From contig DCTO01000043.1 in the NCBI GenBank assembly GCA_002329285.1, positions 24,073-47,731 of the forward strand: DNA of 23,659 nt, in the 5' to 3' direction. Numbering within the stretch: position 1 is the first letter of the stretch; each line of letters starts with the position of its first letter. Position numbers and translations under genes: made by a program. Under the pieces are notes generated by a model, which had not been told where the DNA came from, did not search any database, and was given only the letters and a program-made list of their open reading frames with translations. The stretch is from Ruminococcaceae bacterium UBA1438. Lineage in GTDB: Bacteria > Bacillota > Clostridia > Oscillospirales > Acutalibacteraceae. Of the stretch, positions 416-23,659 are shown in pieces.

Positions 416-2416
416 ATGAAAAGAAATTCAGTTTTAATATCTCTTATACTTGCGGTGCTGATGCTTTTCAGCGCCCTGCCCTCTTATGCCCTTGAGCAGA
501 ATCAGGCGCCGGACGGCACGGTTTATTTTTACAATCTTTGCGGCAGAGGTTATTTAAACGGGGATTGCATTTTCATTCAATCTGGCGATTCCTGGGGAAT
601 GATAGACACGGGGCACAGATATGAAAACACCATAACCGATTCAACCGGCAGGCTTATGAATGCCTCCAGGGAGCAGGGCCTTTCAAATCAGGAGCAATAT
701 AAAAACGGGCGTGAAGCCGTGCTCTTTATGATGGAAAATTACGGATTAAAGCATATTGATTTTATCATTGCAACCCATTCGCATTCAGACCATATCGGCG
801 GCGTGCCTGAAATTGCAGAGCTCAAAAGCAATGACGAAAACGGCAATTCAAGCTATATTGTTGATGAAAACACCGTTTATTTTTACAAGCAATATCGCCA
901 CATTAATAACCGCAACGACGATTTGGAAAACCCACTTGGTGATTCCTGGCACAATCAGGCGTTTTATTATCAGGCAGTTAAGGCAATGCAGCAGCGCGGA
1001 GCGCTTTTGGTGGAGGTTTCAAAGGGCGGCACCTTCGGAATTCCCGGCAAATATGCCGCCTCCTTTGCCGATGATTTGAAAGCAATAAACAATATGCCCT
1101 CTCTCAGCGGCGCATATTATAACGGCGGCGCGGCAAAGGATTATTATGACGATGTGCTTTCCTTCAGAATGGGCGCGCTTCAAATCAGCCTTTACAATCT
1201 TTTTGCGCATAATTCAAGCTTTGATGAAAACGTTAATTCAATTGCCGCGGTTATAACAAACGGCAGTCAGAAAATCGTTTCCATGGCAGATCTGAATATT
1301 GAGGATGAGGCAGAGCAGAAAACTGCCGCGGCAATAAGCAAAACCTTCGGAACGGTTGATTTGTTCAAAGCAAATCATCACGGCAGCAACTCTTATTCAA
1401 ATTCAGGCGCTCTTATTGACAGCCTGCAGCCAAAATATGTTGTTATCACAAGAAACGATCCCATTGCAACGCAGCTGAGCAACAGGGGCGGGCTTTCCCT
1501 TGCAATGCTTTATGCAAAGGAGAATTACGGCACGGATTTCTATGAGGTTGGCGCAACAGGCTTTGCGCTTGCAGCAGAGCTTTCAGCGCAGGGGCTGGAG
1601 TTTTATGCCGTTTCCCAAAGCGAAAGCGGCGTTGAATTCACCGATGCTTCGCCCTGCATAAACATGGTTTCTCCAACAGAGGGATGGAATGCATGGCCAA
1701 CGGAAATCGCAGGATATTCGGATTATTTTTACATTGAAAACGGCAGCTTTCACACGGGCTGGCTTGATTACAATGAAAACCGCTATTACTTTGCCGAAAA
1801 CGGGCAGATGCTGCGCGGCTGGCTTGAAATCGAAGGCAAGCAATATTTCTTTGCTTACAGCGGCGAAATGAAAACCGGCTGGGTGAAAAACGGCGGCTGG
1901 TATTATATGAAGTCTGACGGCGGCTATGAAACCGGCTGGCTTAAGCTTAAAGACGGGATTTATTATTTGGGCACAGACGGCGTTATGGTAACCGGCGCAT
2001 ATATTATTGACGGCAATGTTTTCGTTTTCGATGCAAGCGGCGATATGCAAACCGGTTGGGTTAAGGCCGGCGGCGAATGGTATTATTGCGGCGATGACGG
2101 ATGCGCCCTCACCGGCTGGCAAAAAATCGGCGGCAAATGGTATTTCTTTGATGATTACGGCGTTATGCAAACCGAATGGCACCGCGAAGGCGGCAGCTGG
2201 TTTTATCTCGGCGCGGACGGCGCAATGAAAACGGGCTGGCAGAAAATCGGCGGCATTTGGTATTATTTCAACGAACACGGCGTTATGCAGGTAAGCTGGA
2301 CGCGGCTTGGCGGAATATGGTATTATTTCAATTCAAGCGGTGCAATGCAAACCGGCGCGCAAAGAATTAACGGCAGAACTTATAAATTCAGCGCTTCGGG
2401 CGCATGGGTGATGTGA
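416..2416 (+). CDS. Secreted metallo-beta-lactamase-fold protein with choline-binding-type repeats (Pce/CbpE-like)
   Basis: The product is 666 aa. Residues 1-25 form a signal peptide (MKRN, a hydrophobic stretch, then likely cleavage after SYA). Residues about 35-400 form a metallo-beta-lactamase domain with THSHSDHIGG (H121, H123, D125, H126), MADLN (D292) and NHHGS (H321, H322), so a di-metal hydrolase site looks complete. Residues about 436-660 hold roughly eleven 20-residue repeats of the GWxxxxGxWYYF type, which bind choline on teichoic acids or similar wall glycans. The architecture matches pneumococcal Pce/CbpE, a phosphorylcholine esterase, which also has an MBL domain followed by repeats. 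The HHGS motif is nearer to the ComEC/Rec2 type of MBL domain, so a secreted nuclease or phosphodiesterase is an alternative. It acts outside the cell, held on the wall. Its stop overlaps the next start (TGATG), so ylmH is translationally coupled. The fold and location are well supported; the substrate is inferred. Confidence 0.85.
   Translation: MKRNSVLISLILAVLMLFSALPSYALEQNQAPDGTVYFYNLCGRGYLNGDCIFIQSGDSWGMIDTGHRYENTITDSTGRLMNASREQGLSNQEQYKNGREAVLFMMENYGLKHIDFIIATHSHSDHIGGVPEIAELKSNDENGNSSYIVDENTVYFYKQYRHINNRNDDLENPLGDSWHNQAFYYQAVKAMQQRGALLVEVSKGGTFGIPGKYAASFADDLKAINNMPSLSGAYYNGGAAKDYYDDVLSFRMGALQISLYNLFAHNSSFDENVNSIAAVITNGSQKIVSMADLNIEDEAEQKTAAAISKTFGTVDLFKANHHGSNSYSNSGALIDSLQPKYVVITRNDPIATQLSNRGGLSLAMLYAKENYGTDFYEVGATGFALAAELSAQGLEFYAVSQSESGVEFTDASPCINMVSPTEGWNAWPTEIAGYSDYFYIENGSFHTGWLDYNENRYYFAENGQMLRGWLEIEGKQYFFAYSGEMKTGWVKNGGWYYMKSDGGYETGWLKLKDGIYYLGTDGVMVTGAYIIDGNVFVFDASGDMQTGWVKAGGEWYYCGDDGCALTGWQKIGGKWYFFDDYGVMQTEWHREGGSWFYLGADGAMKTGWQKIGGIWYYFNEHGVMQVSWTRLGGIWYYFNSSGAMQTGAQRINGRTYKFSASGAWVM
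1757..2395 (+). repeat. About eleven 60-bp coding repeats (cell-wall/choline-binding repeats)
   Basis: A regular 20-codon period runs through the 3' third of the gene. Units open with GWL, GWV or GWQ and carry GG-W-YY-F plus DG-M-TG. The DNA shows recurrent ACCGGCTGG and GGTATTATTT. This arrangement invites recombinational change in repeat number. Confidence 0.85.
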
Positions 2417-4027: not shown

Positions 4028-4672
4028 ATGAGTTTTGATGATTTTGAAAAAATAATGCTCTCAGGCGAGATTTATGACCCGAATGAGAGCGAGATTATTT
4101 CCGTTCAGGAAGCCCTGATTGAAAGGGTGAATGAGTTTAACAAAACCCCCGCAACTTCCGAAGGGCTGCAGCGGCGGGCTCAGCTGCTTGGCGAAATGTT
4201 TGGCGAAATCGGAGAAAATGCTTATATTGAGCCTCCGTTTCATTCAAACCTCGGCGGCAGGCATTGCCATATCGGCAAAAATTTTTATGCGAATTTTAAT
4301 TTAACCCTGGTTGATGACGGCGAGATTTTCATCGGCGATAACGTTCTTTGCGCCCCTAATGTTACAATTGCAACGGCGGCGCATCCCTTCAGCCCTATGC
4401 TGCGCGAAAGGGCGCTGCAATATAATCTGCCCGTTAAAATCGGCAACAATGTTTGGATAGGCGCGGGCGCGATTGTTTTGCCCGGAGTCACCATCGGCAG
4501 CAACAGCATTATCGGCGCCGGCTCGGTTGTAACAAAGGATATTCCGGAAAACTGCATTGCCGTGGGCAATCCGTGCAGGGTGCTGCGCTCCATCACGGTT
4601 GAGGATTATTTCACCTATGACCACGGCAAGCCGATTCCGAAGGAAATTTTAGAGAAATACGGAGAAAAATAA
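4028..4672 (+). CDS. Maltose/galactoside O-acetyltransferase-like hexapeptide protein
   Basis: The product is 214 aa, the usual size for the Maa/LacA/NodL group. An N-terminal helical part (LSGEIYDPNE) is followed from about residue 60 by a left-handed beta-helix of hexapeptide repeats: GRHCHIGKNFYANFN, IGDNVLCAPNV, IGNNVWIGAGAIVLPGVTIG and IGAGSVVTKDIP. H119 in TAAHP is the expected catalytic histidine. The family transfers acetyl from acetyl-CoA to sugar hydroxyls in the cytoplasm as a trimer; the true acceptor cannot be read from sequence. AGGTGGG precedes the ATG. The stop TAA overlaps the ATG at 4672 (TAATG), which points to coupling with the lipase gene. Confidence 0.88.
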   Translation: MSFDDFEKIMLSGEIYDPNESEIISVQEALIERVNEFNKTPATSEGLQRRAQLLGEMFGEIGENAYIEPPFHSNLGGRHCHIGKNFYANFNLTLVDDGEIFIGDNVLCAPNVTIATAAHPFSPMLRERALQYNLPVKIGNNVWIGAGAIVLPGVTIGSNSIIGAGSVVTKDIPENCIAVGNPCRVLRSITVEDYFTYDHGKPIPKEILEKYGEK

Positions 4673-4691
4673 TGGCAGAAAAAAACTCTTG
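4672..4691 (+). other. A7 tract separating the best start codon from the lipase frame
   Basis: ATG 4672 has GGAG at 4661-4664 with ideal spacing and overlaps the preceding stop. Read from there, the frame is MAEKNSCG and ends at 4854. The lipase frame instead begins at TTG 4689. One extra A in the run at 4679-4685 would join them as MAEKKLLRLFALFLA followed by LILSSC, a textbook lipoprotein signal peptide. The site is a candidate for slippage, phase variation or a sequencing indel. Confidence 0.7.
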
Positions 4692-5855
4692 CGGCTTTTC
4701 GCTTTGTTTTTGGCAACGGCGCTTATTCTTTCCTCCTGCGCGGCAAAGCCGGCCTCCGTCACCGTTAAGGATGATTGGAGCACGAATTATAAATATGTGT
4801 TTGTTCACGGCCTTTCCGGCTGGGGCAGTTATGATTTTCAGAATAAGTTTTTAAAATATTGGGGCATGCGCGGCGGCGATCTGATGGCTTATCTCAATGA
4901 TGAGGGCTTTGATTGTTATTCTGCTTCCGTTGATCCTTACGGCAGCGCATGGGACCGCGCTTGCGAGCTTTATGCCCAGCTCACCGGCTCTGTTGTTGAT
5001 TACGGCGCAGAGCACAGCGAGCGCTGCAATCACGAGCGCTTTGGCAAGGATTATTCCGAAAAGCCCCTGATTGATTCCTGGAGCGAAGATGATAAAATCA
5101 ACCTCATCGGCCATTCCTTCGGCGGGGCAACAATCCGCCTGCTTTCAGAGCTGATGGCAAACGGCAGCGAGGCGGAGCAAAGCGCAACCCCCGCGGAGGA
5201 ATTATCGCCGCTTTTTGAGGGAGGAAAGGGCGATTGGATTTACAGCATAACCTGCCTTGCCTCTCCCCACAACGGCACCAGCGCTTATTACGTTGATAAC
5301 GGCAGCGTTGACGTCAGCAGCGAGCTTGGCTTCATTGAACGCAAAACGGCGGACATGGTTGGCTCTGCAACCGCCGGCAGCGGAGACGGCAGAGCGGATT
5401 ACGATTATGCTAACCATGATTTAACGATTGATAATGCCCTTGCCCTTAACGAGCAGATTTCAACCTTTGATAATATTTATTATTTTTCCGTTCCCTGCTC
5501 CTCCTCCGTTTTGCAGGAGGATGGCACCTATGCCCCGAACAGGGATATAACGGAGGTAATGTTTGTTAAATCCGCGCTTCTGATGGGCAGAGTTACCGGA
5601 ACAACCCCCGGCGGCGAAAGCTTTGATGAGGCTTGGCTTGATAACGACGGGCTTGTTAACACCGTTTCGGCAAAAGCGCCGTCAAACGCGCCGCAGGCGT
5701 CTTTTGATGAGGGCAGCATAAATGCCGGCATCTGGAACGTTATGCCCGTTTACGAGGGGGATCACATGTCCCTTCAAGGCGGCCTTTTCAAGAAAAACGA
5801 TGTTCGCCTGTTTTTTGCGGAGCATCTGAATATGATTAATTCAATTAAGGAGTAA
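4689..5855 (+). CDS. Lipase-like alpha/beta-hydrolase lipoprotein (family I.5 type)
   Basis: The product is 388 aa from TTG 4689. The hydrophobic start ends in a lipobox (ILSSC, C17), so it is probably a surface lipoprotein. FVHGLSGWG (38-46) is the oxyanion region. GHSFGG carries S143, DNDGLVNTVS carries D320, and GDHMSLQG carries H359, completing a Ser-Asp-His triad. D89 (WDRACELYAQL), H109 and H115 (DYGAEHSERCNHERFG) and D244 align with the zinc ligands known in Geobacillus lipases. The family hydrolyses acylglycerols or other carboxyl esters. TTG 4689 has no clear ribosome site; the well-placed ATG 4672 is out of frame by one base at an A7 run, so expression may need slippage or a length change. 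The gene overlaps the acetyltransferase stop, and the next gene begins 5 bases after it. Confidence 0.85.
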   Translation: MRLFALFLATALILSSCAAKPASVTVKDDWSTNYKYVFVHGLSGWGSYDFQNKFLKYWGMRGGDLMAYLNDEGFDCYSASVDPYGSAWDRACELYAQLTGSVVDYGAEHSERCNHERFGKDYSEKPLIDSWSEDDKINLIGHSFGGATIRLLSELMANGSEAEQSATPAEELSPLFEGGKGDWIYSITCLASPHNGTSAYYVDNGSVDVSSELGFIERKTADMVGSATAGSGDGRADYDYANHDLTIDNALALNEQISTFDNIYYFSVPCSSSVLQEDGTYAPNRDITEVMFVKSALLMGRVTGTTPGGESFDEAWLDNDGLVNTVSAKAPSNAPQASFDEGSINAGIWNVMPVYEGDHMSLQGGLFKKNDVRLFFAEHLNMINSIKE

Positions 5856-5859
5856 AGCC

Positions 5860-6252
5860 ATGGATGTTTTTATCACGGTGAGCGAGCTTGAAAAGCTGAT
5901 TTCCTTTCAGCAGGGAGAGCTTGATGCAGTGCTGATGTATAAAGCGCTTGCAGAAAAAATGAAAACGGAAAAGGAAAAAGAGGTGCTGCTTTCCATCGCC
6001 GCAGATGAGGGCAGGCACGCCGCAATCCTTCGCCAATACACAAAAAAGAAGCTGGAGCCGAAAAGCACGCTTGCAAGGCTGCTGCCTCCGCTTTATAAGA
6101 TTATGGGCAAGAAACGCCTGTTCCCGATTGTTTCAAAATTTGAGGCAGGCACCGTTGCAAGCTATGAGCCCTATTTTAAAAAATTCCCGGAAATCAAGGG
6201 AATTGCGGCGGACGAGGCCCGCCACGCAGAGCTTTTAAAGTCAATAATGTAA
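5860..6252 (+). CDS. Rubrerythrin/ferritin-like di-iron protein
   Basis: The product is 130 aa. It shows the two-fold E...ExxH pattern of a four-helix di-iron protein: E20 (QQGELDA), E50 and H53 (ADEGRHA), E95 (KFEAGTV) and E119 and H122 (ADEARHA). There is no C-terminal rubredoxin CxxC domain, so it is an erythrin-only form, shorter than standard rubrerythrin. Relatives reduce peroxide or handle iron in anaerobes; the exact activity is not shown. AAGGAG (5847-5852) in the lipase end is its ribosome site and the gap is four bases, so it is the last gene of the acetyltransferase-lipase unit. A perfect palindromic terminator follows. Confidence 0.82.
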   Translation: MDVFITVSELEKLISFQQGELDAVLMYKALAEKMKTEKEKEVLLSIAADEGRHAAILRQYTKKKLEPKSTLARLLPPLYKIMGKKRLFPIVSKFEAGTVASYEPYFKKFPEIKGIAADEARHAELLKSIM

Positions 6253-7707: not shown

Positions 7708-9276
7708 TTAAAGATAATTATTAATAAATTCATCAAGTTGGCAGCTAACGTCTCTGCCGTCATTTATAATAACAAAATCCGCCTTGCTTTGCAATACCTT
7801 ATTATCAAGCTGGGCATTCATTCTTTCAAGCGCCTGCTGCTGCGAAATACCGTCCCGCTTCATAATGCGCTCAAGCCTGATATCCTCGGGCGCGCTTACG
7901 CAAAGAATTCTTGAGCAAAGCTTATCCGCTCCGCTTTCAAAAAGCTGGGGCGCATCAAGCACGCAGGGGCATTTTGCATCCGCGAGGCACATTTCAATGA
8001 TTGCGGGATGCATAATCTCATTGAGCAGCGCCGTTTTTTCCTTTGATGAAAAGGCGCGCTTTGCAAGCAGAGCACGGTTAAGAACACCGTCCTCAATAAT
8101 ATCCTGCCCGAATTCCCTTGCAAGAACCGGCAGGAGGGATGAATTTTTTTCAACCGCCCTGCGGGCATAAGCATCCGTATCCAGAATCTGAAAACCTTTT
8201 TTTGAAAGGCAGTTGCAAACATAGCCTTTGCCGGCGCCGGTTAAGCCGGTTAAGCCGATTGTGAATGGCTTTCTTAAATCCAGCACGCAAAACGCCGCCG
8301 CCCTGATAAGGCGGTTATAAACCGCCATGCCCACTCCGCTTTTTTCTGGAGCGCGGGCATATGCTTTTTTTGCGCCGATTTCATCAAGCCTGCGTAAGGC
8401 GGCAAAAATGCTGTGGGACTGGCTTAAATCATCCCCCTCAACGCCGAAGGTGACCTTGGGAACGGTGATATTATCCCCCTCAAAGCAGAGCGCCGCCGCA
8501 TCGCTTTGCAGATTAACGAAGCGCTCATAAGCCTCCCTGCTTCCCTCAACAAGAATTACGCGGGTTTGGGGGGCATAATGCTTATATTTCATTCCCGGAG
8601 AGGCGGCGGTTTCATTTTCGCCAATCTCGTTAAGCACGGCATACGAAAGCCGCACCCTGCCGATAACTGCCTCTATCATCTCCTGCGTAACCGCGCCGGG
8701 ACGCAGGATAACGGGCTCCTCCCCCGCAAGGGTGATAACGGTTGATTCAACGCCGAATTCGCATTCGCCGCCATCAACAATTGCATCAATCCTGCCGTTC
8801 ATATCCTCAAAAACATATTGCGCATTGGTTGGGCTTGGCTTGCCGCTTGTGTTTGCACTTGGAGCGGCAATCGGGCATCCCGCCGCCGCAATCACGGCGC
8901 GCGCGGTTTCATTTTGCGGCATACGCACGGCAACCGTGCCGAGCCCGCCGCTAACCGTGCTGCCGATTAAATCGCTTTTCGGCAAAATAACCGTTAAGGG
9001 CGCAGGGAAAAACGCATCAATGAGCGCCTGCGCCTTTGGTGTGATTTCCTTAACGAGGGGCGCAAAATCCTCTTTCCTTGCAATATGCACAATCAGCGGA
9101 TTATCGCTTGGCCTGCCTTTTGCGGCATAAATGCTTTTGACCGCCGCTTCATCAAGCGCATTTGCGCCGAGGCCGTAAACCGTTTCCGTTGGAAACGCAA
9201 CAAGTCCGCCGCTCTTGAGAATCCTGCCCGCTTCTTCAATATCCTGTTTTGACGTTGTTAGTAATTTAGTGTTCAT
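7708..9276 (-). CDS. Fused threonylcarbamoyl-AMP synthase (Sua5/YwlC) and dephospho-CoA kinase (CoaE)
   Basis: One uninterrupted 522-residue frame carries two enzymes. Residues 1-332 are Sua5: FPTETVYGLGANA (28-40), KGRPSDNPLIVHI (53-65), APSANTSGKPSPT (138-150), and the linker SPGMKYKHYAP into a complete Sua5 C-domain. It makes threonylcarbamoyl-AMP for tRNA t6A37. Residues about 336-522 are CoaE: P-loop GLTGAGKG (344-351), DTDAYARRAV (367-376), NEIMHPAI and DAPQLFE, ending in the usual IINDG region. It phosphorylates dephospho-CoA to CoA. The CoaE P-loop lacks the common GGIASGKS form but keeps G-x4-GK. The gene lies eight bases after prfA. No strong ribosome site is seen, so coupling to prfA is likely. 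The two activities are not consecutive in one pathway, and the fusion is unusual. Confidence 0.9.
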   Translation of the reverse strand: MNTKLLTTSKQDIEEAGRILKSGGLVAFPTETVYGLGANALDEAAVKSIYAAKGRPSDNPLIVHIARKEDFAPLVKEITPKAQALIDAFFPAPLTVILPKSDLIGSTVSGGLGTVAVRMPQNETARAVIAAAGCPIAAPSANTSGKPSPTNAQYVFEDMNGRIDAIVDGGECEFGVESTVITLAGEEPVILRPGAVTQEMIEAVIGRVRLSYAVLNEIGENETAASPGMKYKHYAPQTRVILVEGSREAYERFVNLQSDAAALCFEGDNITVPKVTFGVEGDDLSQSHSIFAALRRLDEIGAKKAYARAPEKSGVGMAVYNRLIRAAAFCVLDLRKPFTIGLTGLTGAGKGYVCNCLSKKGFQILDTDAYARRAVEKNSSLLPVLAREFGQDIIEDGVLNRALLAKRAFSSKEKTALLNEIMHPAIIEMCLADAKCPCVLDAPQLFESGADKLCSRILCVSAPEDIRLERIMKRDGISQQQALERMNAQLDNKVLQSKADFVIINDGRDVSCQLDEFINNYL

Positions 9277-22655: not shown

Positions 22656-23659
22656 ATGGATATTTCTGCAGAATTCAAAAAGAAATTCAACACGGAGGCT
22701 GAGCCTCTTTCGGTTTATTGCCCTTATCGCATTGCCCCCGTCGGCGCACATTCGGATTATCAGCACGGCCTGATTTCCGGCTTTGCGATTGACCAGGGCG
22801 TTGAAATCAAATTCCTGCCCACAGATAACGGCGAGGTTGAGATTTACAGCGGCAATTTTGACGGCAAAACAGATTTTTCCGTTTATGAGCTGCCCCAGCG
22901 CGCTTTTGACTGGGGTGATTTTCCAAAGGCGGCCTTCGTTTCGCTCAAAAGGAAGCACAGAATTGATAAAGGGCTTCAGGGCTTCATTTACGGCAGCCTG
23001 CCCGTTGGCGGCCTTTCATCATCTGCGGCGGTGCTGATTGCATATATCTGCGCAATCTGCAAGATTAACGGCATTAAACTCACCCGTTCTGAGATAATCG
23101 ATTTTGCGCTTTATGCAGAGCATGATTATCTTGAAATGAACGTTGGCAAAATGGATCAAAGCTGCGAGGTTTATTCAAAGAAGGATCACCTGCTTTTCCT
23201 TGACACGCTGGATGACAGCTATAAGCTTATCCCCACAAGCGAGAATATGCCGCCCTATGAATTTGCGGTTATCTTTTCCGGCAAGGAAAGAAAGCTTGCG
23301 AACACGGCGTTTAACTCCCGCGTTGATGAGGCGAAGGCGGCGGCTTATGCCCTGCGCGCCTTTGCGGATATTCCTTACGGCAGCTTCAAGGATTCCTATA
23401 TGCGCGATGTTCCGCGCGAGGTTTTTGACGCGCATAAGGATAAGATTCCTGCCGCCTGGCGCAGAAGGGCGGAGCATTTTTACGGCGAGTTTGAGCGCGT
23501 GCAGAGAGGCGCAAAGGCCTGGGAAAACGGCGATATAGTTGAATTCGGCAAGGTTATGTTTGAATCAGGCTATTCCTCAATTTATAACTGGGAAACCGGC
23601 TCGCCCGAGCTGCAAACGCTTTATGAAATCATGAAACGCACGGACGGCATTTACGGCGG
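22656..23659 (+). CDS. GHMP-family sugar kinase, galacturonokinase/galactokinase-like (3' end missing)
   Basis: The frame is open from ATG 22656 (AAAGGA upstream) to the window edge, giving 334 codons. PYRIAPVGAHSDYQHG (23-38) is the galactokinase-type substrate motif in the form PYRIxPxGAHxDxQxG, which I associate with galacturonokinases; classical GalK has an N-L-I-G-E-H-T-D-Y form. LPVGGLSSSAAV (115-126) is the GHMP phosphate-binding loop. YEIMKRTDGIYGG at the edge leads into the expected third motif (G-x-G-F-G-G), which is cut off. The family phosphorylates C1 of galactose or galacturonate with ATP, feeding UDP-sugar synthesis. Being divergent from glf, it could supply UDP-galactose-type donors. 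Galactokinase or another uronate kinase remains possible. Confidence 0.8.
   Translation, partial: MDISAEFKKKFNTEAEPLSVYCPYRIAPVGAHSDYQHGLISGFAIDQGVEIKFLPTDNGEVEIYSGNFDGKTDFSVYELPQRAFDWGDFPKAAFVSLKRKHRIDKGLQGFIYGSLPVGGLSSSAAVLIAYICAICKINGIKLTRSEIIDFALYAEHDYLEMNVGKMDQSCEVYSKKDHLLFLDTLDDSYKLIPTSENMPPYEFAVIFSGKERKLANTAFNSRVDEAKAAAYALRAFADIPYGSFKDSYMRDVPREVFDAHKDKIPAAWRRRAEHFYGEFERVQRGAKAWENGDIVEFGKVMFESGYSSIYNWETGSPELQTLYEIMKRTDGIYG

What the first reader, a model, noticed from the sequence alone, without database searches (positions are those of the whole stretch)
4661..4854. Lipase lipoprotein out of frame with its own start at an A7 tract
The well-formed start (GGAG, 7-base gap, ATG at 4672 overlapping the previous stop) reads into a dead end at 4854. 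The lipase frame, which has a lipobox and complete catalytic and zinc residues, is one base away across AAAAAAA at 4679-4685. With eight A the two join into an ideal lipoprotein signal peptide. This suggests an OFF state of a phase-variable surface lipase, transcriptional slippage that makes a fraction of full-length protein, or an assembly indel. Initiation at TTG 4689 is possible but lacks a ribosome site.
Basis: partly seen in the sequence, partly recalled or inferred. Interest (0 to 1): 0.75.

Follow-up and report, generated by a model that had tools for sequence, protein, structure and literature searches.

The report
Stray one-base break in lipase gene
In one draft genome of an uncultured gut bacterium, the start of an ordinary secreted fat-splitting enzyme gene is one base out of step; the relatives examined point to a chance sequencing error or a very recent mutation rather than an on/off switch.

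Summary
The sequence is as described: GGAG 4661-4664 and ATG 4672 lead into a 60-codon dead end; a complete lipase frame (TTG 4689 to 5855) lies one base away, with A7 at 4679-4685. The lipase is a Lip_C (PF24708) relative of Geobacillus-type lipases. The switch and slippage readings find no support. Of 57 other lipase loci checked, 55 have an in-frame ATG at the expected distance, one has GTG/TTG and one lacks the signal region; the window has only TTG. Seven of the 57 carry A7 or A8 near the start, read in frame, and A7/T7 runs are common in this genome. The closest relatives begin MKRKNS(L/F)RL and the window's ATG frame reads M-A-E-K-N-S, so the missing base more likely lies in 4686-4691, after the A tract. 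That evidence is modest: two of three distinct relative N-termini favour it and one is neutral. The lipase frame still looks constrained. The genome is a gapped draft in which I judged three other mid-gene frame breaks real in 265 kb. Best reading: a sporadic one-base loss, either a consensus error or a very recent mutation. No second assembly of this species was found, so reads must decide.

The parts
4028..4672 (+). upstream hexapeptide acetyltransferase gene whose stop overlaps ATG 4672
   Evidence: Hexapep and Mac Pfam matches; same neighbour in the nearest relative L032
4661..4664 (+). GGAG, likely ribosome site for ATG 4672
   Evidence: sequence
4672..4854 (+). 60-codon dead-end frame from the ATG
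   Evidence: sequence; no Pfam match
4679..4685 (+). A7 tract, read as parts of Glu-Lys-Asn codons in the ATG frame
4686..4691 (+). most likely stretch of the one-base length difference from relatives (modest evidence)
   Evidence: frame-break scan: best for P0002 and for P0003/P0004 (identical over the 22 residues used); no preference for P0005
4689..5855 (+). lipase frame (388 aa from TTG) with lipobox-like LSSC
   Evidence: lipobox read by eye
5860..6252 (+). downstream rubrerythrin-like gene, starting 4 bases after the lipase stop
   Evidence: a relative of it lies beside the lipase in 3 of 14 loci tested (L048, L011, L017), not in L032

Best explanation
This is an ordinary gene for a secreted lipoprotein lipase that, in this draft assembly, is one base short near its 5' end. 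As written, ribosomes starting at ATG 4672 leave the lipase frame within about seven codons and stop at 4854, so little or no lipoprotein would be made. The loss is sporadic, not a switch: either a consensus or assembly error (my estimate about 0.45) or a very recent inactivating mutation in the sampled population (about 0.35). Shown: the frame break in the sequence and in-frame copies in relatives. Inferred: that it is sporadic, and that it lies just after the A tract.
For: In-frame ATG 60-165 bases before the residue-36 codon in 55 of 57 other loci (29 same genus, 28 from the family search); the window fails that test, having only TTG. In the same genus it is 28 of 29, the exception L018 having GTG/TTG. 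The nearest syntenic relative L003/L032 has 21 bases from its ATG to the conserved CGG, the window 20. Frame-break scan: codons 6-7 score 48 (P0002) and 56 (P0003 and P0004) against 40 and 44 at the A tract. Lipase frame constrained: pN 0.157, pS 0.551 against L003; at 168 columns invariant in six other relatives the window alone differs at 2, L003 alone at 6, both at 5. Gapped assembly with NN runs, and three further mid-gene frame breaks judged real in 264,636 sampled bases. The gene is patchy: 38 of 80 genus genomes. PMC3711429 (passages) expects singleton frame breaks with BLASTp support to be sequencing errors.
Against: No reads, and no second assembly of the species: the window protein is alone in its cluster, so error and mutation cannot be separated and within-species variation is untested. 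Three frame breaks judged real in 265 kb is a low rate, which argues against a very error-prone platform. The break placement rests on a few residues: P0003 and P0004 are identical there, P0005 shows no preference (44 against 45), and a break after codon 1 scores 46 for P0002 against the best 48. That ATG 4672 is the same start as in L003 is likely, not certain. Six of the 120 homologs listed also have short N-termini by my reading; their DNA was not seen.
Confidence: 0.8

Rival explanations
1. Translation starts at TTG 4689 with a short signal peptide, so the gene is intact as a 388-aa lipoprotein.
For: The database gene call is this 388-aa protein. The frame keeps a hydrophobic stretch and a lipobox-like LSSC. 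Only 16 bases separate the upstream stop from the TTG, so reinitiation is possible. A few relatives seem to use GTG or TTG (L018; farthest start in L084, L088, L089).
Against: No ribosome site at a suitable distance: 24 bases separate GGAG from the TTG. In the closest relatives the matching position is an internal Leu or Phe codon after a Lys-rich start. 28 of 29 same-genus loci have an in-frame ATG.
Confidence: 0.08
2. Phase-variable OFF state: the A tract gains or loses a base to switch the lipase on and off.
For: A homopolymer near the start of a surface protein is a usual place for such switches; PMC3711429 used poly-A/T of at least 7 as a flag (passages).
Against: Neither exception among the 57 other loci shows an A-tract frame split. 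The nearest relative has no A7. A7/T7 runs occur 98 times in 265 kb. The break more likely lies after the tract. Within-species variation itself could not be tested.
Confidence: 0.05
3. Transcriptional slippage or -1 ribosomal frameshifting at GAA AAA AAC makes some full-length lipase.
For: The heptamer A AAA AAC fits the X XXY YYZ pattern in the right frame (sequence; pattern recalled). Slippage on A runs is proposed to rescue frameshifted bacterial genes (PMC1088944, passages).
Against: The passages seen concern runs of 9, and of 8 in two organisms, not 7. The heptamer is absent from the in-frame relative L003, so there is no sign of conservation.
Confidence: 0.05

Closest known systems
Lip_C lipases (PF24708), as in Geobacillus L1/T1 and staphylococcal lipases
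   Same: Matches PF24708 and 37 distinct solved-chain sequences, all named lipases, with catalytic motifs aligned
   Different: Lipoprotein-type signal region; 5' end out of frame in this assembly
Singleton frameshifted genes of the GeneTack survey (PMC3711429)
   Same: Isolated frame break in a gene with in-frame relatives
   Different: Lies at the extreme 5' end, where a TTG start call can hide it
Slipped-strand phase-variable surface genes
   Same: Homopolymer near the start of a surface protein gene
   Different: Short, common tract; no off-frame relative seen; break probably outside the tract

Membership tests
Lip_C lipase (PF24708) | match above the curated cut-off | tested here: met
   176.2 bits against cut-off 27
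Lip_C lipase (PF24708) | catalytic Ser, Asp, His and zinc-ligand positions | tested here: met
   aligned to 8yye and 2z5g; which residues bind zinc is recalled, binding not tested
Phase-variable gene by slipped-strand mispairing | tract length varies among strains or reads | not testable with these tools
   no reads; single-member protein cluster
Phase-variable gene by slipped-strand mispairing | off-frame copies at the tract among relatives | tested here: not met
   55 of 57 other loci have an in-frame ATG; the others are L018 (GTG/TTG) and L091 (no signal region); these are between-species comparisons
Programmed recoding site | slippery site and frame change conserved in relatives | tested here: not met
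   nearest relative L003 is in frame and lacks the heptamer
Intact lipoprotein gene from TTG 4689 | ribosome site for that start | tested here: not met
   only GGAG, 24 bases away

The most novel reading that the evidence does not exclude
The A7 site feeds a low, noise-driven fraction of full-length lipase through RNA polymerase or ribosome slippage, giving a cell-to-cell mosaic of a secreted fat-splitting enzyme in a gut bacterium.
Probability: 0.05. Interest if true: 0.4.

Novelty: already known. Interest (0 to 1): 0.1.

Why it matters
It shows how a gene call from a weak TTG can hide a 5' frame break, so that a probable error or fresh mutation passes as an intact gene. It also warns against reading a short A tract as a switch without looking at relatives.

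Tried and rejected
Phase variation, slippage and -1 frameshifting were weighed and rated low (see rivals). A first frame-tracking model without gene overlaps gave 100 frame-break calls and was discarded. A second, allowing overlaps, gave 48. Of these, 32 lay within about 71 bases of an N run and were dropped; 16 were read by eye: 3 judged real, 2 unclear (L056:3260, L068:10786), 11 gene boundaries, N-related or false calls. Of the 3 judged real, Pfam gave two parts of one protein type only for LysR (HTH_1, then the substrate domain); the IF-2B gene matched on one fragment and the nuclease-like gene on neither, so these two rest on reading the frames. The model cannot see breaks as close to a start as the one in this finding.

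One search failed through a wrong option of mine and gave 0 loci; one search is the corrected script. Its test (any in-frame ATG/GTG/TTG) passed 57 of 57, but the window's TTG passes it too, so I replaced it (in-frame ATG 60-165 bases before the residue-36 codon): 55 of 57. In L084, L088 and L089 the ATG may be an internal Met. Several family loci have no lipobox that I can see.

Papers: seen as listings. Passages seen of PMC1088944, PMC5574713 and PMC3711429, and section 6 of PMC1088944. PMC5574713 gave no length-specific rate in the passages seen.

Full report
What is there. The window is bases 24073-47731 of contig C76 of a 1.75 Mb, 122-contig draft genome (85.8% complete). The eight related loci carry titles of uncultured Eubacterium, Ruminococcaceae, Clostridia, Lachnospiraceae and Oscillospiraceae assemblies, the nearest from red deer; that the window comes from a gut bacterium is inferred from these. 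The features of the finding are all present at the stated places: GGAG, ATG 4672 overlapping the previous stop, A7 at 4679-4685, a dead end at 4854, and an open lipase frame from TTG 4689 to 5855.

What the gene is. The lipase frame matches PF24708 and 37 distinct solved-chain sequences, all named lipases. It lies between an acetyltransferase gene and a rubrerythrin-like gene. The order YlmH-like gene, acetyltransferase, lipase is kept in the nearest relative L032 at 74-77% protein identity; the rubrerythrin-like gene is not found there, but lies beside the lipase in 3 of 14 loci tested. One search found 4,916 homologs among the 7,997 candidates it scored and listed 120. Most of those 120 begin with a Lys/Arg-rich signal; six (P0016, P0033, P0098, P0107, P0110, P0115) have short N-termini by my reading, and I did not see their DNA.

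Where the frame changes. P0002-P0004 begin MKRKNS(L/F)RL and P0005 MKKRFSLRI. In the window the ATG frame reads M-A-E-K-N-S before leaving the lipase frame. From ATG to the conserved CGG are 21 bases in L003 and 20 in the window. Scoring break points after 0 to 13 codons against four relatives gave the best values in codons 6-7, after the A tract, for P0002 (48, tied) and P0003/P0004 (56; these two are identical over the residues used), against 40 and 44 at the A tract. P0005 shows no preference (44 against 45). A break after codon 1 scores 46, 50, 50 and 44. This is modest evidence. The bases upstream of the start align ambiguously with L032.

Is it programmed? By the test, 55 of 57 other loci (those returned, not every match) have an in-frame ATG 60-165 bases before the residue-36 codon; the window does not. 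The exceptions are L018, with GTG/TTG starts, and L091, with an ATG only 15 bases before and no signal region. The looser test (ATG, GTG or TTG) passed all 57 but would pass the window's TTG as well. Seven of 57 have A7 (six) or A8 (one) in the first 60 bases from the chosen start, read in frame. A7/T7 runs occur 98 times and A8/T8 10 times in 264,636 bases of this genome. So the tract is ordinary, and neither off-frame states at a tract nor a recoding site was seen in relatives.

Is the gene decaying? Against L003, pN is 0.157 and pS 0.551; at 168 columns invariant in six other relatives the window alone differs at 2, L003 alone at 6 and both at 5. The break is therefore recent, an error, or rescued. 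The gene is patchy: 38 of 80 genus genomes, 24 of 51 of high quality, and 67 of 300 family genomes have a match, many of them distant paralogs. Among the 37 other genus genomes with a match, six copies look disrupted: G012 by a frame break, G021 and G073 by a stop, G066 by an internal deletion, G035 and G045 by junctions to unrelated sequence. I could not tell biology from assembly in these. G011 ends at a contig end. G029 matches from residue 32 only and its start was not checked. G030 was flagged, but no stop lay inside its match.

Quality of this genome. Contig C76 holds eleven N runs, ten of exactly two bases, and the window is the stretch between two of them. In 264,636 sampled bases (2,978 of them an all-N contig) I judged three further mid-gene frame breaks real; two lie at six-base A/T runs. 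A consensus error or sporadic mutation is thus a sufficient explanation. PMC3711429 (passages) has the same expectation for singleton frame breaks.

Verdict. A sporadic one-base loss at the 5' end of an ordinary lipase gene: error or recent mutation. Switch and slippage are not excluded but unlikely. Reads would settle it.

Noticed in passing
window ends; contig C76 24071-24072 and 47732-47733: The window is exactly the stretch between two NN gaps, and reading frames jump across these two gaps and the one at 23185.
   Followed up: partly
L040:1321, L062:11884, L068:3704: Three other mid-gene frame breaks judged real in this genome, in nuclease-like, IF-2B/MtnA-like and LysR genes.
   Followed up: partly
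L043, L045, L029, L048, L047, L049: Lipase copies in six same-genus genomes look broken by frame break, stop, deletion or junction.
   Followed up: partly
window 7708-9276: One 522-aa frame that looks like a fusion of a threonylcarbamoyl-AMP synthase and a dephospho-CoA kinase (names recalled, not tested).
   Followed up: no
window 416-2416: Metallo-beta-lactamase-like protein followed by repeated Trp/Gly/Tyr-rich units like cell-wall-binding repeats (recalled, not tested).
   Followed up: no
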